64,000 bases of DNA from Roseburia hominis A2-183 (GTDB lineage Bacteria > Bacillota > Clostridia > Lachnospirales > Lachnospiraceae), in the NCBI RefSeq assembly GCF_000225345.1, contig NC_015977.1, forward strand, positions 3,162,001 to 3,226,000, in the 5' to 3' direction. The notes beneath the pieces are model-generated. The model made no database searches. It worked only from the letters and a program-made list of their open reading frames with translations, and was not told the DNA's origin. The translations under genes were made by a program, and so were the position numbers. Numbering within the stretch: position 1 is the first letter of the stretch; each line of letters begins with the position of its first letter. This document shows, piece after piece, positions 28,540 to 49,447 of the stretch.

Positions 28540-28840
28540 CAAAGAGCAAATGCAAGGAACAGAACACGGTTTACTGATTCCCCGCATCACAGAGAGCCGT
28601 CGGTCGGTGCGAGACGGTATGCGGTTTCAGGAACTATCCTCTGCGAGCAGTGCACTGAACCAAGTAGGTGTCACCGGGATTCCCCCGTTACAGGGAAGCT
28701 TATTGCTGCAGGCTTACGCCCGCAAAGATGAGATTGAGAGGTCGTTTTTTACGACAAGCAAAGTGGTAACGCGGAAGCTTACGCCTTCGTCTTTGGCTGC
28801 ACATTCGTGCAGCGGGACGGGGGCGTTTTTGTTTTACAGA
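28540..28840 (+). promoter_or_regulatory. T-box riboswitch in front of cstA
   Basis: A tRNA-sensing leader. The distal stem I with AGAGAG and the loop GGTCGGTGCGA is visible at about 28590-28615. The T-box sequence AAGTGGTAACGCGG is at 28761-28774. The terminator follows, a long GC-rich hairpin around a GCTGCAC/GTGCAGC core that ends in GGGGGCGTTTTTG. The antiterminator bulge reads TGGT, which predicts a tRNA with discriminator A. The specifier lies within GAACTATCC (about 28630); CTA (Leu), TAT (Tyr) or ATC (Ile) all agree with that discriminator and I cannot decide. An uncharged tRNA would switch cstA on. Confidence 0.88.
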
Positions 28841-28908
28841 AAATGCCATCCTTCTCTTTGCCCAATGTTGATCTATCAGAAAGGAGCCGCCTTCGGGCGG
28901 GAAAAAAA

Positions 28909-30600
28909 ATGAATGGTTTAGTGATTATCTTAATCGGAATCGTAGCACTGGGTGCCGGCTACCTCTTTTACGGGCGCTGGCTGGCAAAGAAATGGGGCAT
29001 TGATCCAAACGCCAAGACTCCTGCTTACACCCATGAGGACGGGGAGGATTACGTACCGTCTTCCAGATTTACTGTGTTTTCTCATCAGTTTTCTTCCATC
29101 GCAGGAGCGGGGCCTGTCACCGGTCCGATCTTAGCCTCCGTATTCGGCTGGGTGCCGGTACTCTTGTGGCTGATCATCGGTGGTCTGTTTTTCGGCGCGG
29201 TACAGGATTTCGGTGCGCTGTATGCCTCGGTCAAAAATGAGGGCAAGTCGATGGGTATGATTATTGAAAAATATATCGGCAAGACCGGACGGAAGCTCTT
29301 CATGCTGTTCTGCTGGCTGTTTACCCTGCTTGTCATTGCAGCGTTCACGGACATGGTTGCCGGTACGTTCGTCGGAAAAGGCGTGGACGGCATGACTGCC
29401 GAGACCTCCTACGCAAACTCCGCCGCTGCTTCCATCTCCATGCTCTTTATCGTCGTCGCCGTTGTCTTCGGTCTGATCCAGAAGCATGTCGGCAAGATGA
29501 ATGAAGTGGTAAAAGCGGTTGTTGCAATCGCGCTGCTCGTTGCCATGTTTGCAGTGGGTATGGCACTTCCGATCTGCACCACCAAATCCGCCTGGATCTA
29601 CATTGTCATGGCGTATCTGTTTCTGGCATCCGTCATGCCGATGTGGCTTCTCATGCAGCCGCGTGATTATATGACAACGTTCATGCTGCTCGGCATGATC
29701 ATCGGCGCGGTGGTCGGCGTTCTCGTCGCTCATCCTGCCATGCAGTTAAACGCTTTTAACGGCTTTACCGTAAACGGCAGCAGCCTTTTCCCGACGCTGT
29801 TCGTCACGATCGCCTGCGGTGCCGTCTCCGGTTTCCACAGCCTGGTCTCCTCGGGAACGTCCTCCAAGACGATCAGCAACGAAAAAGATATGCCGATGGT
29901 CGGCTACGGCGCCATGGTCGTAGAATCTCTGCTCGGCATTGTCTCCCTTGTCGTTGTCGGCGCTGTCGCCGTAAACGGAACCAAACCGGACGGAACTCCG
30001 TTCGCCATCTTCTCCTCCGGCGTTGCCGGTTTCCTTGAGAAGTTTGGTCTTCCGGTACAGGTTGCCACGGTCTTCATGACCATGTGCGTCTCCGCGCTTG
30101 CGCTGACATCTCTGGATTCCGTCGCACGTATCGGGCGTATGTCCTTCCAGGAACTGTTCTACGGCGACACGACCGATCCAGCAAAAATGTCTCCGCTGCA
30201 GCGCGTGCTGACAAACAAATATTTTGCCACGGTCATCACCCTGTTCTTCGGCTATCTGCTGACACTCGGCGGATATAACAATGTATGGCCGCTGTTCGGT
30301 TCCGCGAACCAGCTTCTCGCCGCACTCGTCCTGATCGCACTGGCAGTCTTCTTAAAGACAACCGGACGCACCGGCTGGACGCTCTACATACCGATGTTTG
30401 CCATGCTCGCCGTGACGTTCACCGCACTCATCCAGAAGACGATCGCTCTGGTGAAAAACATCGCGGGCGGTCAGGCGACATTCCTCGTCGACGGACTGCA
30501 GTTCATCGTTGCCGTACTTTTAATGGTGCTCGGCGTTCTGGTTGCCTTCAGCTGCTTAAAGAAGCTGTTTGGAAAGAGCAGTGCCGGTCAGGCGGCATAA
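28909..30600 (+). CDS. cstA: CstA-family carbon starvation/peptide-pyruvate transporter
   Basis: A 563-residue membrane protein with about 16 helices. The CstA domain is clear: RFTVFSHQFSSIAGAGPVTGPILASVFGWVPVLLW, GGLFFGAVQDFGALYASVKNEGKSMG, HSLVSSGTSSKTISNEKD and LTSLDSVARIGR. CstA proteins take up pyruvate or peptides/amino acids. T-box control here points to an amino acid or peptide. It is the short type (no long C-terminal extension). The start at 28909 is preceded by AAGGAG, a UUCG hairpin and A7 (see findings). An approximately 630-bp palindromic element follows the stop. Confidence 0.93.
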   Translation: MNGLVIILIGIVALGAGYLFYGRWLAKKWGIDPNAKTPAYTHEDGEDYVPSSRFTVFSHQFSSIAGAGPVTGPILASVFGWVPVLLWLIIGGLFFGAVQDFGALYASVKNEGKSMGMIIEKYIGKTGRKLFMLFCWLFTLLVIAAFTDMVAGTFVGKGVDGMTAETSYANSAAASISMLFIVVAVVFGLIQKHVGKMNEVVKAVVAIALLVAMFAVGMALPICTTKSAWIYIVMAYLFLASVMPMWLLMQPRDYMTTFMLLGMIIGAVVGVLVAHPAMQLNAFNGFTVNGSSLFPTLFVTIACGAVSGFHSLVSSGTSSKTISNEKDMPMVGYGAMVVESLLGIVSLVVVGAVAVNGTKPDGTPFAIFSSGVAGFLEKFGLPVQVATVFMTMCVSALALTSLDSVARIGRMSFQELFYGDTTDPAKMSPLQRVLTNKYFATVITLFFGYLLTLGGYNNVWPLFGSANQLLAALVLIALAVFLKTTGRTGWTLYIPMFAMLAVTFTALIQKTIALVKNIAGGQATFLVDGLQFIVAVLLMVLGVLVAFSCLKKLFGKSSAGQAA

Positions 30601-30612
30601 TATTGGCGTAAT

Positions 30613-31240
30613 AAGGAATTGCCGCAATAAGCATAGACCTCTTTGGGGCGATAAGTAATATTATAAGAAACAGATACTTAAAAGTTCCAGATAACCATGC
30701 GGCGGCAAATCTGACCGCAAAATCCGGTATTTCTAACCATGCCGCTGCTGGCATCTGTGATGATCCGTGTCTTTCCAAGTTTGGAGCACTCCACGGACTG
30801 TGTCCGCAAGCCAGCAGACAATTTTAGGACTTTTGTGTGTGTCCCTTGCGGCACCAGACAACAGATGGCATAAATGCCATCTTTATGTCGAACAAAACAT
30901 AACCGCGCGAAGCCGCTGTCTGAGTCGGCATCTGCCCTATTTTCAATAGCAGATGCCGGCGAGTTCGGTTCGCGCAGTTTTATATTGTCTGTGAAGAGGT
31001 GCCATTAGGGACACCAGAAAGTCCGCTCATTGTCTGCGGCTTGTCGGACACACTCCGTGAGTGTCCAAACATGGCCAAGACACGGAACGGGATGCCAGCC
31101 ACGGCATGGAAGAAATACACGAATTTTGCTTCAAAGAATTTGCCGCCGTCTGTTTATTCTGGAACTTTTTTGTTCTCTGGTCTTCTTATAATATTACTTA
31201 TCAAAGCAAAGCACGGTATGCTTATTGCGGCAGTTCCTTT
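30613..31240. repeat. Giant palindromic intergenic repeat, copy 1
   Basis: The 628-bp gap between cstA and the convergent DUF6440 gene is one imperfect palindrome. The outer arms (30613-30670 and 31183-31240) share GCCGCAATAAGCATA and GATAAGTAATATTATAAGAA in inverted order. Further blocks mirror each other: TTTGGA..ACTC..ACGGA..TGTGTCCG, GCAGACAAT and GGACTTT. The centre (30904-30975) is a hairpin closed by GCGCGAA/TTCGCGC with core GGCATCTGC/GCAGATGCC. Short frames exist on both strands, but they are repeats of each other and have no coding character. Confidence 0.88.
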
Positions 31241-31423
31241 TTATTCATTTATCACCGGCGAAATGACCGGCTTTCCGTCGCGGTCCAGAAGCGGCGTCAT
31301 TCCTCCCGCATATCCGCTTGCGTGAAACACATAATTCACGCCAGTTTCCTTGTCCACCCAGATTTCCGTGGTCGTCATCGTTCCCTGGGAATAAACCTTT
31401 TCAAATCTCTGGTCCTTTGCCAT
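31241..31423 (-). CDS. DUF6440 family protein
   Basis: A 60-residue protein, MAKDQRFEKVYSQGTMTTTE then IWVDKETGVNYVFHASGYAGGMTPLLD. It matches the small Firmicutes family DUF6440, of unknown function, probably a compact beta fold. Start has AAGGAGGAAG. Its stop touches the end of palindromic copy 1. It stands alone between that repeat and the MFS gene. Confidence 0.88.
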   Translation of the reverse strand: MAKDQRFEKVYSQGTMTTTEIWVDKETGVNYVFHASGYAGGMTPLLDRDGKPVISPVINE

Positions 31424-40147: not shown

Positions 40148-40942
40148 ATGATAAAACTGATTGCCACCGATGTCGACGGGACACTGGTAAAAGACGGAAC
40201 GATGCAGATCGATCCCGAATACATGACTGTCATTAAGGAACTTGTCCAGAAAGGAATCATTTTTGCCGTCTGCTCCGGCAGACAGTTCATCAGTGAGCGG
40301 AAGCTGTTTGCACCGATCAAAGATCAGCTGCTCTACATCACGGACGGCGGCACGGTCGTGCGCACCCCGCAGGAGATTCTGATGGTTCACACGATGCCGC
40401 GCGACGTCTGGAGCGGCATGTGCCGCATGGTGCAGGAACAGATGCCGCACTGCGACTGTTTTGTCGCCACACCGGACTACTGTCTCGCCGAAGACGCCGG
40501 AAGCCGCATGTTCCACTGGCTGCGCGATTCCTACGGCTACGATATCCGGGAGGCAGAGCGTCTATCTGACATCCCGGAGCAGGATATCATCAAGTTCACC
40601 GTCTACCACAAATCTGCCTGTGAGGAAATGTGTGCGCCGCTCTTCACCCCGGCATGGAAGGACAAGGCACAGCTTGCCGCCGCCGGCAAAGAGTGGATGG
40701 ACTGCAATCCGCTCGGTGCGAACAAGGGAACCGCGATCGAGTTCGTGCAGAAGCATTTCGGCATTTCACCGGAAGAGACCTGCACGTTCGGGGATAACCT
40801 GAACGACATCGAGATGCTGCAGAACGCCGGCAGGAGTTACGCCGTCGCCAACGCCAGGGCGGAAGTCATCGCCGCGGCAAAAGATACCTGTGCGCCCTAC
40901 TGGGAGAATGGAGTCCTCCAGATCTTAAAAACATTTTTATAA
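40148..40942 (+). CDS. Cof-type HAD hydrolase
   Basis: A 264-residue class IIB HAD phosphatase. Motif I is TDVDGTLVK (Asp8, Asp10), motif II CSGR, motif III Lys in GANKGTAIE and motif IV FGDNLNDIEML. The large cap inserted between motifs II and III is of the Cof type. Members dephosphorylate sugar phosphates or flavin and pyridoxal phosphates; the substrate is unknown. It ends at palindromic copy 3 and converges with pgi. Confidence 0.92.
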   Translation: MIKLIATDVDGTLVKDGTMQIDPEYMTVIKELVQKGIIFAVCSGRQFISERKLFAPIKDQLLYITDGGTVVRTPQEILMVHTMPRDVWSGMCRMVQEQMPHCDCFVATPDYCLAEDAGSRMFHWLRDSYGYDIREAERLSDIPEQDIIKFTVYHKSACEEMCAPLFTPAWKDKAQLAAAGKEWMDCNPLGANKGTAIEFVQKHFGISPEETCTFGDNLNDIEMLQNAGRSYAVANARAEVIAAAKDTCAPYWENGVLQILKTFL

Positions 40943-41560
40943 AGAAAAAGAATCGTGTCCATCCAGCGGCAGTGCCCCGGCGTACACGGTTCTTTTTCTT
41001 TTGTCGTTATGACGGCTTGTGCATATTGCAGGAAATCGCGGCAGCGCATTCTGTCGCAAAATTCCGCAGTTCTATCGGACGCGTCAACGGCATCTGCGAT
41101 GATTCCTGTCTTTTTGAGGTTCGACAGTGCACCACGGATGTTCGCGGGCAATCGGACATTTTCGACGGCTTTTGTGTCTCGCTTGGCAGACCGATGAGTA
41201 AAACCGGACCGCGCAAACGACTGTCTGAGGTGTCTGCCGCCGTGTTTTAAATGCGGGCAGACACCGAGTTTCGGATTGCGCGGTCTGATCGGGACTTTGT
41301 GAAGCGGTCTGCCTAGCGAGACTAGAAAGCCGACGCTTTGTCCGTTGCCTGCGGACACCCGCGGCGCGCAGTCGAACGCCAAAAGAGACAGCAAACCGGA
41401 TGCCGTTGACGCATCCGAAGAACTTCTGAAATTTTGCTCCAAAGAATTGCACTGCCGCTATTCCTGCAATACTGCCATGCCGTCCGCCCTTCCCAACGCA
41501 CAAAAAAAGAACTGTGTACGCCGCGCATCTGCCGCAGGACGTGACACAGTTCTTTTTCGT
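40941..41560. repeat. Giant palindromic intergenic repeat, copy 3 (diverged subfamily)
   Basis: The whole 620-bp gap between the Cof-type HAD gene and pgi is an imperfect palindrome. Left blocks such as GCGTCAACGGCATC, GGCAGACC and TATTGCAGGAA reappear inverted on the right. The centre closes with CCGCGCAA/TTGCGCGG and GTGTCTGCC/GGCAGACAC. Each outer end is also a hairpin of its own (40941-41001 and 41505-41558) with an AAAAAGAA stem that ends in TTCTTTTT, so the ends look like strong terminators facing both genes. The overall plan matches copies 1 and 2, but only short blocks are identical. Confidence 0.82.
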
Positions 41561-41564
41561 TATA

Positions 41565-43145
41565 TTAAATGTTTAACAGATCGCTGAATACCTTCAGGGC
41601 GCCGTCGGTCTCATGTGCAAGCACGCGCTTTGCCAGAACCTTTCCAAGCTGTACGCCTTCCTGGTCGAAGCTGTTCACATTCCACAGGAAGCCCTGGAAC
41701 ATGATCTTGTTCTCAAAGTGTGCCAGAAGTGCTCCGAGAGACTGCGGGTTCACCTGCTCACCGATGATGATGCTGGATGGACGTCCACCCTCGAAATTCT
41801 TGTTGCGGTTCTCGTCGGATTTGCCGCATGCGAATGCCACGATCTGAGCTGCGACATTTGCGCAAAGCTTCTGCTGGCTTGTGCTGTCCTGGATCACAAC
41901 ATCTGTGCCGATCTGGCTGTTCTTAAAGCCGACAAACTGAAGCGGTACGATGTCTGTGCCCTGATGCAGCAGCTGGTAGAACGAATGCTGTCCGTTCGTG
42001 CCAGGCTCGCCGAAGATCACCGGTCCTGTCGGGTAGTCTACCGGCTCACCGAAACGGTTCACCGACTTACCGTTGGACTCCATATCAAGCTGCTGTAAAT
42101 GTGCCGGGAAGCGGCTGAGTGCCTGTGAGTAAGGAAGCACTGCCGTTGCCGGATAGCCCAGTACGTTGCGCTCGTAAACGCCAATCAGTGCATCGAGCAT
42201 CTCCGGGTTCTTCAATACGTCTTTGTTTGCGGAAAGCTGATCCTCTGCAGCAGCTCCCTCGAGGAACTGTGCGAACACTTCCGGTCCGAACGCCAGGGAT
42301 AATACGGCACCGCCGACTGCGGAAGTAGAGGAGAAACGTCCTCCGATATAGTCATCCATAAAGAATGCCGCAAGGTAATCATCACTCTTTGCCAGCGGGG
42401 ATGTCTCGCTCGTTACAGCAATCATATGCTTGGAAGGATCCAGTCCCGCTTTCTTTAACGCATCTTTTACGAAGGACTCGTTCGTCAGGGTCTCCAGTGT
42501 CGTACCAGACTTGGATACCAGTACGAAAATGGCATGCGCCACATCGGTGGAATTCAGCACTGCTGCAGCATCATCCGGGTCTACATTGCTGATGAACTTT
42601 GCCTCCATCTTGAACTTGCCGTTTTTCTTCGCCCAGTTCTCAAGTGCCAGATACATCGCACGCGGACCGAGGTCACTACCACCGATACCGATCTGAACAA
42701 CTGTTGTGAACTTTTCTCCTGCCGCATTGGTGATCTCGCCGGAATGTACCTTGTTGGCAAAATCAGCGATTCTCTCCTGCTGCTCTACATAGAAGCTACG
42801 CTTATCCACACCGTCTGCCGTCACAGCATCACCGAGCTGTCCGCGTGTCATGTGATGAAGCACCAGACGCTTCTCACCGGTGTTGATCACCTCACCATTG
42901 TAAAGTGCCTCAAACTTCTCCGCAAGCTGTGCTTCCTCAGCCAGCTTTACAAGTGCTGCAAGCACCTTATCATCCACCTGCTTGGCTGCATAGTTGTAAG
43001 AAAATCCGCCAGCCATCGGCACACTGTAATTCTTCACACGGTCAGCACCGTTCTCTCCGGACATTGCCTCGACAAGATTCACACGTTCCACTTCGGAAAG
43101 CTCCTTGAAAGAAGCAAGGGTATCCAAGTTGTTCCAGGTAACCAT
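41565..43145 (-). CDS. pgi: Glucose-6-phosphate isomerase
   Basis: A 526-residue phosphosugar isomerase that interconverts glucose-6- and fructose-6-phosphate. Key blocks are VVQIGIGGSDLGPRAMYLAL, LVSKSGTTLETLTNE, DDYIGGRFSSTSAVGG, FGEPGTNGQHSFYQLLHQG (catalytic His region) and the C-terminal Lys region. Its length and GTNGQHSFYQL motif put it in the long, eukaryote/proteobacteria-like group rather than the 450-residue Bacillus group. The start has GGAGG. It follows thrS on the same strand with a 102-base gap. Confidence 0.95.
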   Translation of the reverse strand: MVTWNNLDTLASFKELSEVERVNLVEAMSGENGADRVKNYSVPMAGGFSYNYAAKQVDDKVLAALVKLAEEAQLAEKFEALYNGEVINTGEKRLVLHHMTRGQLGDAVTADGVDKRSFYVEQQERIADFANKVHSGEITNAAGEKFTTVVQIGIGGSDLGPRAMYLALENWAKKNGKFKMEAKFISNVDPDDAAAVLNSTDVAHAIFVLVSKSGTTLETLTNESFVKDALKKAGLDPSKHMIAVTSETSPLAKSDDYLAAFFMDDYIGGRFSSTSAVGGAVLSLAFGPEVFAQFLEGAAAEDQLSANKDVLKNPEMLDALIGVYERNVLGYPATAVLPYSQALSRFPAHLQQLDMESNGKSVNRFGEPVDYPTGPVIFGEPGTNGQHSFYQLLHQGTDIVPLQFVGFKNSQIGTDVVIQDSTSQQKLCANVAAQIVAFACGKSDENRNKNFEGGRPSSIIIGEQVNPQSLGALLAHFENKIMFQGFLWNVNSFDQEGVQLGKVLAKRVLAHETDGALKVFSDLLNI

Positions 43146-46613: not shown

Positions 46614-47531
46614 ATGGAATATGTATTGTTACTCATCGGTTTTGTACTCTTAGTTAAGGGCGCGGATTTCTTTGTGGAGGGAAGTTCTTCGCTCGCCAAA
46701 ATCTTAAAGGTGCCCAGCGTCATCATCGGTCTTACGATCGTTGCCATGGGAACCAGCGCTCCGGAGGCGTCCGTCAGCATCAACGCGGCGCTTGGCGGCA
46801 GCAACGATATTGCCATCAGCAATGTCGTCGGATCGAATATATTCAACGGTCTGGTTGTGGTCGGAATCTGCGCCTTTTTGTCCGGCTTTCAGACGAACGC
46901 GGAGATCTTAAAGCGGGACATGCCTGTCAATATTCTGGTCACGCTGATTCTGTGCCTCATGTTTCTCGACGGAACGCTCGGCCGCGTCGAAGGTTTTCTT
47001 CTTCTGGCAGGAATGGTTCTCTACATCACATGCATGATCCGTTCCGCCCTGCGCAACCGTGAGGAAGGCGAGGTCTGTAAGGTATTACCGCTTCCGAAAA
47101 GTATCCTCTTTATGGGTGGCGGACTTGCCGCTGTCATCTTCGGTGGCGATCTGGTCGTCGACAACGCCTGCATCATCGCCGCAAACTTCGGTGTCAGCCA
47201 GAATTTTATCGGATTGACCATCATCGCCATCGGCACTTCCCTGCCAGAACTCGTCACCTCGATTGTGGCAACCAGAAAAGGAGACAGCGGGCTGGCGCTC
47301 GGCAATGCGGTCGGATCAAATCTCTTCAATATCTTGTTTATCCTCGGCATGTCCGCTGCCATCTCGCCGCTTCATGTGCTCGGCGAATCAGTGATCGACT
47401 GCGTCCTGCTGCTCTGCAGCGGTATCCTGCTGTTTGTTTTCGCGAGAACCAAACGGTCCATGAGCCGTGCGGAGGGCGCCGTCTGCGTGTTATTATACGT
47501 CGCCTACACGGCATATCTCTTTGTAAGATAA
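46614..47531 (+). CDS. Calcium/sodium antiporter (CaCA family, YrbG-like)
   Basis: A 305-residue exchanger with ten helices and two inverted alpha repeats: GTSAPEASVSINAALGGSND followed by VVGSNIFN, and GTSLPELVTSIVATRKGDSG followed by AVGSNLFN. The acidic and Asn residues in these repeats bind the cation. YrbG-like proteins extrude Ca2+ in exchange for Na+ or H+. Because a manganese riboswitch controls it, export of Mn2+ is a realistic alternative here. The gene ends at palindromic copy 2. Confidence 0.92.
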   Translation: MEYVLLLIGFVLLVKGADFFVEGSSSLAKILKVPSVIIGLTIVAMGTSAPEASVSINAALGGSNDIAISNVVGSNIFNGLVVVGICAFLSGFQTNAEILKRDMPVNILVTLILCLMFLDGTLGRVEGFLLLAGMVLYITCMIRSALRNREEGEVCKVLPLPKSILFMGGGLAAVIFGGDLVVDNACIIAANFGVSQNFIGLTIIAIGTSLPELVTSIVATRKGDSGLALGNAVGSNLFNILFILGMSAAISPLHVLGESVIDCVLLLCSGILLFVFARTKRSMSRAEGAVCVLLYVAYTAYLFVR

Positions 47532-47542
47532 CCTCTTACACA

Positions 47543-48133
47543 AAGGAACTGTCGCAATAGGCATATCGCTCTTTGCTTTGATAAGTAATATTATGAGAAA
47601 CGCACTTGGGAATTTCATGTGGAAATGCAGATGGAATATTCGTTGGAGAAAAATGTGAACATTTCTTCCAGCTGAATGTTTGCATCGGATTCCGTGTCTC
47701 TTCCACGTTTGAACACTCCCGGAGTGTGTCCGACAAATCAGAGACAATGGGCGAACTTTCTAGTGGCGGCTAATGCCGCTGCTTCATAGACATTATAAAA
47801 TCGCGCGAACCGAAACTCATTGCCATCTGCTATTGAAGATAAGGCAGATGGCAACTCAGACATCGGCTTCGCGCGATTATGTTTTATTCAGCAGCGGCAA
47901 AAGCGCCACACGAAAGTTCTTAAATTGTCTCATGATTTGCGGACACAGTCCGTGGAGTGCTCCAAACTTGGAAAGACACGGATCATCAAGGATGCAAACA
48001 TTCGGCTGGTTAGAAATGCCACATTTTTTGAACCGAATATCCATCCGCATTTCCATCTGAAATCCCACGGTGTGGTCTTTTGATAATATTACTTATCAAA
48101 GCAAAGAAGTTCTATGCTTATTGCGGCAATTCC
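47543..48133. repeat. Giant palindromic intergenic repeat, copy 2
   Basis: About 590 bp between the CaCA gene and the convergent TRAP gene. The outer arms share AAGGAACTG..GCAATA and GATAAGTAATATTAT with their inverted copies near 48080-48133. Inside, TTTGCATC, CCGTGTCT, GTGTCCG and the centre GCGCGAAxCCGA/TCGGCTTCGCGC mirror each other. The segment 47935-47985, read on the minus strand, matches copy 1 at 30760-30810 with no visible difference for more than 40 bases. Copy 2 is thus a close relative in the opposite orientation. Confidence 0.88.
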
Positions 48134-48145
48134 ACAGGTCTATCC

Positions 48146-49447
48146 TTAGACTAATCCCATGAGGCTAGGAACTCCGAGGGAGAGTCCCGGTACAAAGGTT
48201 ACCAGAAGAAGCATCACAATCAGTACCAGGAAATATGGAATAAGCTTCGGTGTTACTTCCTCAATCGATACATGTCCGATACCGCATCCGACAAAAAGTA
48301 CGGAGCCTACCGGCGGTGTGATATTTCCAAGGCACATATTGAAAATTAGCATTACGCCAAACTGGATGTCGCTCATGCCAAAGCTCTGTGCAATCGGCAG
48401 GAAGATCGGTGTAAAAATCAAGATTGCCGGTGTGATGTCCATGAACATACCGATGATCAGCAGAATAACGTTCATCAGAATGAAGATGACATATTTGTTT
48501 GTGGATACCGAGAGCAGCGCGCTGCTGATTGCTGCCGGGATTCCGGAATAAGCCATCACGAATGACATCGCGGAAGAAGCAGAAATCAAAAACAGGATGA
48601 TTCCGGAAGTCTTGGCAGAGTTCAGGAGAATCTCCATAAATCCCTTGAAATCGATACTCTTGTAGATGATGGACAGGATGAGGCAGTAAAGAACTGCAAT
48701 ACCTGCACCTTCTGTTGCAGTAAAGATGCCGGATACGATACCGCCGATAACGATAATGATCAGCAGCAGGGACGGAATGGCATCCCAGATCGTCTTTGCA
48801 ACACTGATGGATTTGTCACGGCCGGTCGCCTTGATGCCCATTTTTTTCGCATAGATGAACGCAACCACCATACAGCCGAGTCCCATGAGGATACCCGGAA
48901 CATATCCAGCCATGAACAGCGTGGAAATGGATACGCCGCCGGCTACGGTAGAGTAAACGATGAATGCAGAGGTCGGAGGAATCAGAAGTCCGGTCGGTGC
49001 GGAAGCAATGTTGGCTGCCGCCGAGTAAGCCGGATCATACTCCTGCTCTTTTTCAATCGGACTGATACATCCGCCCATTGCAGATGCAGCCGCTACGGAA
49101 GAACCGGAGAGCGCTCCAAAAAGCATGTTTCCAAGGATATTGGCCTGTGCCAGGTTTCCCGGAAGTTTTCCCACAAAAAGCTGTGCAAAATTGACAAGTC
49201 TCTTTGCGATACCGCCATTGTTCATGATGTTACCGGCGAGGATGAACAGCGGAACCGCCAGCAGGGAAAAACTTTCGATACCGGAATTCATCTTCTGCAT
49301 GGTAATAAACGTAATCTGATCCCAGGAAAGGGTAGACATTGCAGTTACGATGGAAGATACAATAATACTTACAGAAATCGGAACACCCATGAACAGCAGT
49401 ACGCCGAAAACGACAAACAAAATGATAGTTGTTAGTACGATATTCAT
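48146..49447 (-). CDS. TRAP transporter large permease DctM
   Basis: A 433-residue permease with about twelve helices. FSLLAVPLFILAGNIMNNGGIAKRLVNFA, LSGSSVAAASAMGG and MFMDITPAILIFTPIFLPIAQSFGM with TPPVGSVLFVGCGI are characteristic of DctM. TRAP permeases use a sodium gradient and a binding protein to import acids such as C4-dicarboxylates, sialic acid or uronates. The gene follows dctQ after 11 bases. Confidence 0.95.
   Translation of the reverse strand: MNIVLTTIILFVVFGVLLFMGVPISVSIIVSSIVTAMSTLSWDQITFITMQKMNSGIESFSLLAVPLFILAGNIMNNGGIAKRLVNFAQLFVGKLPGNLAQANILGNMLFGALSGSSVAAASAMGGCISPIEKEQEYDPAYSAAANIASAPTGLLIPPTSAFIVYSTVAGGVSISTLFMAGYVPGILMGLGCMVVAFIYAKKMGIKATGRDKSISVAKTIWDAIPSLLLIIIVIGGIVSGIFTATEGAGIAVLYCLILSIIYKSIDFKGFMEILLNSAKTSGIILFLISASSAMSFVMAYSGIPAAISSALLSVSTNKYVIFILMNVILLIIGMFMDITPAILIFTPIFLPIAQSFGMSDIQFGVMLIFNMCLGNITPPVGSVLFVGCGIGHVSIEEVTPKLIPYFLVLIVMLLLVTFVPGLSLGVPSLMGLV

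What the first reader, a model, noticed from the sequence alone, without database searches (positions are those of the whole stretch)
30613..31240. Giant palindromic intergenic repeats: each copy is one inverted repeat of about 600 bp
Reading the cstA/DUF6440 gap on both strands, the right half is an inverted copy of the left over about 300 bases: the terminal arms, the TTTGGA-ACTC-TGTGTCCG block, GCAGACAAT and GGACTTT all pair. A transcript of either strand would fold into one very long hairpin with a GC-rich cap. Bacterial palindromic repeats that I know (REP, BIME, ERIC, BOX, RUP) are 30-250 bp. Two further copies are in the window. It is not a known riboswitch or large ncRNA class that I recognise.
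Basis: seen in the sequence. Interest (0 to 1): 0.88.

Follow-up and report, generated by a model that had tools for sequence, protein, structure and literature searches.

The report
Giant DNA hairpins at gene ends
A gut bacterium carries dozens of copies of a roughly 600-base stretch of DNA that is one long mirror-image hairpin, mostly placed where genes end, and its hairpin shape has been kept in related species even where the letters have changed.

Summary
Window 30609-31243 is one imperfect palindrome (MFE -350/-359 kcal/mol on the two strands, shuffles about -178). All three window copies lie between convergent genes. The genome (genus Roseburia) holds at least 78 copies. A covariance model of the cap, refined across species, hits 13 of 62 genus genomes; 21 of 32 foreign loci examined are palindromes of 525 bp or more.

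Pairing is kept by double substitutions (99 of 191 pairs between species; 35 of 45 cap pairs), while some loop letters and left/right asymmetries are conserved. G-U and A-C cells are about equally common (627 versus 648), so neither strand is clearly favoured as RNA. It is not coding.

Of 62 copies, 41 sit in convergent, 20 in tandem, 1 in divergent gaps, with T-tracts enriched at the ends.

Best reading: mobile, structure-conserved DNA hairpins retained at gene 3' ends, whose base probably acts as a two-way terminator. No transposase, target duplication or expression evidence was found for this family.

The parts
30609..31243 (+). Copy 1, the giant palindrome of the finding, between convergent cstA and the DUF6440 gene
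   Evidence: arms, folding; family member; cap model hit
30609..30911 (+). Left arm of copy 1
   Evidence: inverted pairs I1-I6 and I8; MFE structure
30856..30889 (+). Optional insertion of about 34 bases in the left arm, with its own small hairpin; present in 12 of the 60 aligned copies
   Evidence: alignment A1, (rows counted by eye)
30865..31012 (+). Cap domain of copy 1 found by covariance model R1
   Evidence: G000:C1:3192865-3193012, 128.9 bits, E 2.3e-31
30969..31243 (+). Right arm of copy 1, ending in CAGTTCCTTTTTA
40921..41582 (+). Copy 2, diverged: 662-bp palindrome, MFE -372.6/-383.9 kcal/mol, between convergent HAD-hydrolase and PGI genes
   Evidence: family match 41027-41470; cap model hit 41176-41320 (106.1 bits)
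47541..48134 (-). Copy 3, inverted relative to copy 1, between convergent Na/Ca exchanger and DctM genes
   Evidence: cap model hit 47766-47908 on the minus strand (157.5 bits)
28807..30600 (+). cstA (PF02554), left neighbour of copy 1
31241..31423 (-). DUF6440 gene (PF20037), right neighbour; its stop codon abuts the palindrome
40148..40942 (+). HAD hydrolase gene (PF08282), left neighbour of copy 2
41565..43145 (-). Phosphoglucose isomerase gene (PF00342), right neighbour of copy 2
46614..47531 (+). Sodium/calcium exchanger gene (PF01699), left neighbour of copy 3
48146..49447 (-). DctM TRAP transporter gene (PF06808), right neighbour of copy 3

Best explanation
This is a dispersed, non-coding family of about 600-bp DNA palindromes. 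SHOWN: each copy is one hairpin with a conserved cap; arms stay complementary through double substitutions, roughly symmetrically for both strands; copies are numerous, nested, internally deleted, absent at sister sites, and sit at gene 3' ends with T-tracts on their edges. INFERRED: the family spreads as a non-autonomous mobile element whose folded DNA (single-stranded hairpin or cruciform) is the recognised form. That would conserve pairing at the DNA level and conserve a few unpaired letters as recognition marks. Insertions survive mainly downstream of genes, where the hairpin base with A-tract on one side and T-tract on the other can serve as a terminator in both directions, so that many copies have replaced the ordinary terminator of a convergent gene pair.
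For: At least 78 copies in one genome; 13 of 62 genus genomes with cap model R2. Double compensatory changes: 84 of 155 pairs within the genome, 99 of 191 between species, 35 of 45 cap pairs with 95.9% of cells paired against 72.9% in shuffles. G-U 627 versus A-C 648 cells; foreign copies 118 versus 118 on shared pairs; 19 tandem copies read in gene direction 208 versus 183, p = 0.22: DNA-like symmetry. Cap unpaired columns about as conserved as paired ones (entropy 0.28 versus 0.24). Mobility: a full copy inside an older copy (L009); no giant palindrome at the end of cstA in 9 relatives' loci; internally shortened forms. Place: 41 convergent, 20 tandem, 1 divergent of 62, against 14/27/13 of 54 gaps in the window. 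T-tracts (6 or more T in 8) at 31 of 76 ends of convergent copies against 8% of 342 background windows, p = 4e-13.
Against: No target duplication for this family (37 copies), no linked transposase: 7 Y1 transposase genes were found in the genome, none next to a listed copy (one search compared). No expression data. The terminator role is inferred: the downstream T-tract excess over the upstream end in tandem copies is not significant (p = 0.08), and termination would not need 300-bp arms. Insertion into pre-existing hairpins is clear in only 5 of 27 copies, with little average excess. A slight lean to the minus strand exists in this genome: more stable by 10.3 kcal/mol on average in 38 full copies, and A-C 415 versus G-U 334 on shared pairs. 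Singletons are only mildly rarer in paired than unpaired columns (0.39 versus 0.48 per column), so selection on single copies is not proven.
Confidence: 0.45

Rival explanations
1. Templated arm-to-arm correction. The palindrome is kept by mutation, not selection: replication template switching copies one arm onto the other (quasi-palindrome correction), so mismatches turn into paired double changes on either strand.
For: Near-equal G-U and A-C counts. Of 128 copy-unique substitutions in paired columns, 58 still pair with their mate. Each copy's own outer arms match each other better than arms of other copies (local score 33.9 versus 19.3), sometimes in runs of double changes in the outer arms. 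Transversions exceed transitions among singletons (101 versus 60).
Against: Left/right asymmetries persist: for example columns 347/433 are C-A in 60 of 60 copies and 361/419 G-U in 57 of 60, and unpaired motifs such as TGTYTGA opposite GAGT are invariant in 22 cross-species rows. Among close copies one-sided changes dominate (737 versus 115 two-sided at 2.5-5% divergence) and core double changes are mostly scattered singly.
Confidence: 0.25
2. Giant two-way RNA hairpin. Both transcripts of a convergent pair end in the element; the RNA hairpin terminates transcription and protects or tethers both mRNA 3' ends, and each copy is selected at its locus.
For: 41 of 62 copies are in convergent gaps, mostly within a few tens of bases of the stop codons; T-tracts at the ends; pairing kept even in strongly diverged copies; two both-flank and five one-flank shared sites between species. 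A survey reports that stem-loops with 4A/4T edges close to convergent genes in Firmicutes may work as bidirectional terminators (PMC1590033, passages seen).
Against: In 19 tandem copies, where one strand is the expected 3' UTR, G-U is not in excess over A-C (208 versus 183, p = 0.22); a small tRNA control gave 5 versus 1 (12 tRNAs). Copies at shared sites are not sisters in the tree: L033 groups with L024 and L291 with L283.
Confidence: 0.22
3. A one-strand structured non-coding RNA gene family.
For: Conserved cap with conserved internal-loop letters and strong covariation; the covariance model separates the two orientations (for example 177 versus 55 bits at 1024722).
Against: Near-equal G-U and A-C counts on the two strands and near-equal consensus energies, -441.4 and -444.5; no Rfam match.
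Confidence: 0.06
4. A protein-coding relic.
For: ORFs of 108 and 133 codons overlap the right arm of copy 1; the longest stop-free runs are somewhat above shuffles (mean 114 versus 88 codons).
Against: Lengths of core segments vary in all three phases among 60 copies; no period-3 conservation.
Confidence: 0.01

Closest known systems
MITEs and related small mobile repeats (Correia/NEMIS, RUP, ERIC, RPE, YPAL)
   Same: Dispersed, non-coding, mostly intergenic, inverted-repeat, foldable on both strands, nested insertions and shortened forms. YPAL targets are reported at or next to dyad symmetry (PMC2229807, passages).
   Different: About 600 bp rather than roughly 100-200 bp; palindromic over the whole length; no target duplication found here; no parent insertion sequence found; pairing conserved across species by double changes.
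REP/BIME elements and RAYT transposases
   Same: Extragenic palindromes at gene 3' ends in high copy.
   Different: REPs are 20-40 bp (abstract line of PMC3733652, search listing); no Y1 transposase gene lies next to a listed copy here.
Bidirectional intrinsic terminators of convergent genes
   Same: Hairpin between A-tract and T-tract close to two stop codons.
   Different: About ten times longer, and a repeated homologous family rather than independent local hairpins.
Integron attC sites (recalled, no call)
   Same: Structure-conserved, sequence-variable imperfect palindromes recognised as folded single-stranded DNA with a few marked unpaired bases.
   Different: attC sites are far shorter and belong to gene cassettes; no integrase link was tested here.

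Membership tests
MITE | Terminal inverted repeats | tested here: met
   27 copies share ends of the GGAACTGCCGCAATAAGCATA type on both sides; about 30 others have copy-specific ends
MITE | Target site duplication | tested here: not met
   37 full-length copies show no excess of direct repeats over swapped flanks
MITE | Parent insertion sequence with the same ends | tested here: inconclusive
   Genome-wide end-pattern search found end pairs without a transposase, one pair around a lacZ-type operon; a diverged partner would be missed
MITE | No coding capacity | tested here: met
REP/BIME with RAYT | Short (20-40 bp) palindromic unit | tested here: not met
   palindromes of about 600 bp
REP/BIME with RAYT | Linked Y1 (RAYT) transposase gene | tested here: not met
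   7 PF01797 matches in the genome, none adjacent to a listed copy
Structured non-coding RNA family | Covarying base pairs | tested here: met
Structured non-coding RNA family | One functional strand (G-U tolerated, A-C not) | tested here: not met
   627 versus 648 cells on all pairs, 334 versus 415 on shared pairs; 118 versus 118 in foreign copies
Structured non-coding RNA family | A transcript | not testable with these tools
   no RNA-seq available
Intrinsic terminator | T-tract directly after the stem | tested here: met
   31 of 76 ends of convergent copies have 6 or more T in 8, background 8% of 342 windows; enriched, not present at every end
Intrinsic terminator | Terminates transcription | not testable with these tools
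   needs expression data

The most novel reading that the evidence does not exclude
A new kind of genomic element: giant DNA hairpins of fixed length (about 600 bp) whose secondary structure, not sequence, is the inherited and recognised trait. They would be read as folded DNA by a dedicated but unidentified protein, and kept at convergent gene ends as two-way transcription or topology boundaries.
Probability: 0.3. Interest if true: 0.93.

Novelty: new variant of a known kind. Interest (0 to 1): 0.8.

Why it matters
Long palindromes are generally held to be unstable in bacteria (general knowledge, recalled), yet here at least 78 imperfect ones of about 600 bp make up roughly 1.3% of a genome (78 x about 600 bp in 3.59 Mb), and the same fold recurs in 13 of 62 genus genomes searched. 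If the fold is selected as DNA, this is a natural system for studying how cells tolerate, copy and use very long hairpins, and possibly a new class of two-way gene-end boundary. The family was nearly invisible to sequence search: blastn reported hits in only 2 of 60 genomes, own one included, while a structure model finds it in 13 of 62. Similar elements may therefore be missed elsewhere.

Tried and rejected
Target duplications: a scan at the ends and a wider scan found no excess of direct repeats, but an excess of inverted matches across the flanks (8 or more bases in 9 of 37 copies against 1.7 expected). Insertion into pre-existing terminator loops: joined flanks are only slightly more foldable than swapped ones, -15.9 versus -14.8 kcal/mol; clear by eye in 5 of 27 copies. 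Autonomous partner: the 7.2-kb end pair encloses AraC, LacZ-type and transporter ORFs, by reading the ORFs, and no transposase was noticed. Y1 transposases: present, not adjacent. One-strand RNA and coding were rejected as described. Phage and plasmid records: no blastn match; two exact cap words in viral contigs: none. An exact double-motif scan of genome contigs found nothing, but it may omit the source genome. Literature: searches returned no listed paper on giant Roseburia palindromes; three papers were seen as passages only.

Full report
1. The observation. Window 30609-31243 holds nested inverted arms along its whole length and folds on either strand as one hairpin of -349.8 and -359.3 kcal/mol, about twice the shuffled means. 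It starts about 8-12 bases after the cstA stop codon and ends at the stop codon of the DUF6440 gene. Copy 3 (47541-48134, inverted) and the diverged copy 2 (palindrome 40921-41582, -372.6/-383.9 kcal/mol) are further members. All three lie between convergent genes.

2. Where it comes from. The genus is Roseburia: contigs of the genus genomes match named Roseburia records by length and place (R. inulinivorans, R. faecis, R. porci, Roseburia sp. RGIG9039). The genome length of 3,592,125 bp is, by recall only, that of R. hominis A2-183. A record labelled R. hominis An869 has only 79% CstA identity, so the species name stays unsure.

3. Copy number. BLAST-type searches of the whole genome gave 63 distinct loci, all confirmed with a profile. 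A covariance model of the cap (R1, 37 sequences) gives 78 copies on the proper strand. 150 of 1108 candidates were scored, so 78 is a lower bound. Of the 63 loci folded, 61 reach -290 kcal/mol or lower on the plus strand; the exceptions are L066 and L078 (with two simple shuffles each at about -146 to -203). Copies of about 25-35% divergence fold as strongly as the others.

4. Anatomy. Twenty-seven copies share the ends GGAACTGCCGCAATAAGCATA...TATGCTTATTGCGGCAGTTCC. Inside lie a motif TGATAAGTAATATTA, arms that come in alternative block types on both sides at once, and a cap of about 110 bases whose unpaired columns are about as conserved as its paired ones (entropy 0.28 versus 0.24). Twelve of 60 aligned copies carry an extra small hairpin in the left arm. 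Arms are not simple mirror images: some mismatches are fixed, for example columns 347/433 C-A in 60 of 60.

5. Covariation. In the 60-copy alignment RNAalifold predicts 155 pairs, 84 with at least one double change that keeps the pair. Own-arm Watson-Crick fraction in the core of 33 diverged copies is 0.906, against 0.807 when the left arm is paired with another copy's right arm; in the outer arms 0.720 against 0.531. In the cross-species cap alignment (22 rows) 95.9% of cells pair against 72.9% in 500 shuffles, and the covariation score is 0.668 against 0.220, or 0.048-0.127 when slid. The structure was derived from the same alignment, so the slid control is favourable to it. Between 10 own and 12 foreign copies, 99 of 191 pairs have a double change seen in at least two foreign copies. 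At one shared site (L033 here, L291 in G077) the two copies are 61% identical, with 0.93 and 0.80 of pairs intact, but only 0.62 when arms are swapped.

6. Which molecule. Consensus energies of the two strands are -441.4 and -444.5, and G-U and A-C cells number 627 and 648 on all pairs. On the 212 pairs shared by both predictions A-C leads, 415 to 334, and the minus strand is on average 10.3 kcal/mol more stable in 38 full copies: a slight lean, not the strong excess expected of a one-strand RNA. Foreign copies give 118 and 118 on shared pairs. In 19 tandem copies, read in gene direction, the counts are 208 and 183 (p = 0.22). A small control of 12 tRNA acceptor stems gave 5 G-U and 1 A-C. I read this as constraint at the DNA level, or on both transcripts.

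7. Other species. blastn with copy 1 found the family in 2 of 60 genomes, own one included, the other a 36-base match. R1 found it in 5 of 194 relatives, 1 of 119 genera. R2, refined with 12 foreign copies, found it in 13 of 62 genus genomes, own one included, with stricter filters and 49 candidates scored per genome. Of 32 foreign loci examined, 21 contain palindromes of 525 bp or more; others are shorter, cut by contig ends or without a palindrome. Context of 30 foreign loci: 15 convergent, 8 tandem, 4 divergent, 3 unresolved.

8. Place in the genome. Of 63 own loci, 62 have two callable neighbours: 41 convergent, 20 tandem, 1 divergent. A control of 54 gaps in the window gives 14 convergent (3 of them holding these elements), 27 tandem and 13 divergent. 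ORFs were called greedily with an 80-codon limit; for copy 1 this skipped the 60-codon DUF6440 gene, without changing the class. T-tracts (6 or more T in 8) occur at 31 of 76 ends of convergent copies against 8% of 342 background windows (p = 4e-13). In tandem copies the downstream end has 12 of 19 and the upstream end 8 of 19 (p = 0.08, not significant).

9. Mobility. A full copy sits inside an older copy (L009). In nine relatives' loci the end of cstA carries no palindrome longer than 54 bases; one of these loci ends about 70 bases after the gene. Internally shortened copies of about 115 and 190 bp keep both ends. No direct-repeat excess was found. Species clades: own copies form one group (81/84), G073 one (100/100); copies at the shared site L033/L291 are not sisters. 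So either copies are homogenised within species or the same gene ends are hit repeatedly. Shared sites: two with both flanks and five with one flank, among 15 foreign loci; part of that output was cut. By rough estimate a hotspot of some hundreds of convergent gaps could give one or two by chance.

10. How pairing is kept. Between close copies one-sided changes prevail (737 against 115 at 2.5-5% divergence, with 20.5 two-sided expected if independent), and two-sided ones catch up with distance. Copy-unique changes are nearly as common in paired as in unpaired columns (130 in 332 versus 31 in 64), and 58 of 128 still pair. This mixture fits selection on active lineages plus some arm-to-arm copying; the data do not separate them.

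11. Neighbouring phenomena. Other Roseburia genomes have their own, apparently unrelated palindrome families. In G076 (R. intestinalis by recalled length only) a family of about 310 bp has copies flanked by 7-base direct repeats in 3 of 3 copies with exact ends, read by eye. Large palindromes are otherwise sparse: 9 of 120-314 bp in 800 kb of three other genus genomes and one G077 contig, and 13 of at most 275 bp in 1.34 Mb around 80 named cstA relatives.

12. Verdict. A real, conserved, multi-copy giant palindrome family, not in Rfam and not named in the papers that my searches listed. The structural claims are strong; mobility is well supported but without an enzyme; the terminator role and the DNA-hairpin mechanism are inferences.

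Noticed in passing
G076:C1 4066012-4066325, 4026093-4026406, 3137814-3138122 (L155-L157): A separate palindrome family of about 310 bp, with 7-base direct repeats at 3 of 3 exact-ended copies, minimal 40-45 bp forms (2832966, 3685278) and roughly 840-bp double forms (3598559-3599397, 1168606-1169443).
   Followed up: partly
L147 9256-9513 and 18677-18847, L149 5362-5621 (G079): Another unrelated palindrome family of about 170-260 bp, three related copies in 60 kb.
   Followed up: no
G000:C1 2288928-2296092 (L094): Two inward-facing ends of the element enclose 7.2 kb with AraC-type, transporter and LacZ-type ORFs, as if the interior had been replaced by an operon.
   Followed up: partly
L095 (G000:C1 810676-810783), L096 (988440-988663): Internally deleted mini-versions that keep both ends and remain palindromic.
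   Followed up: partly
L009, G000:C1 96652-97568: A full element lies at the centre of an older element and replaces its cap.
   Followed up: partly
window 28546-28797: T-box leader (Rfam RF00230) directly upstream of cstA.
   Followed up: no
G000:C1 3225761-3226120, running over the right end of the window: IS200-type Y1 transposase gene, one of 7 such matches in the genome.
   Followed up: no
window 30589-30600 and 31268-31276: Inverted similarity continues beyond copy 1 into the coding ends of both neighbours (GCCGGTCA in cstA, TGACCGGC in the DUF6440 gene).
   Followed up: partly
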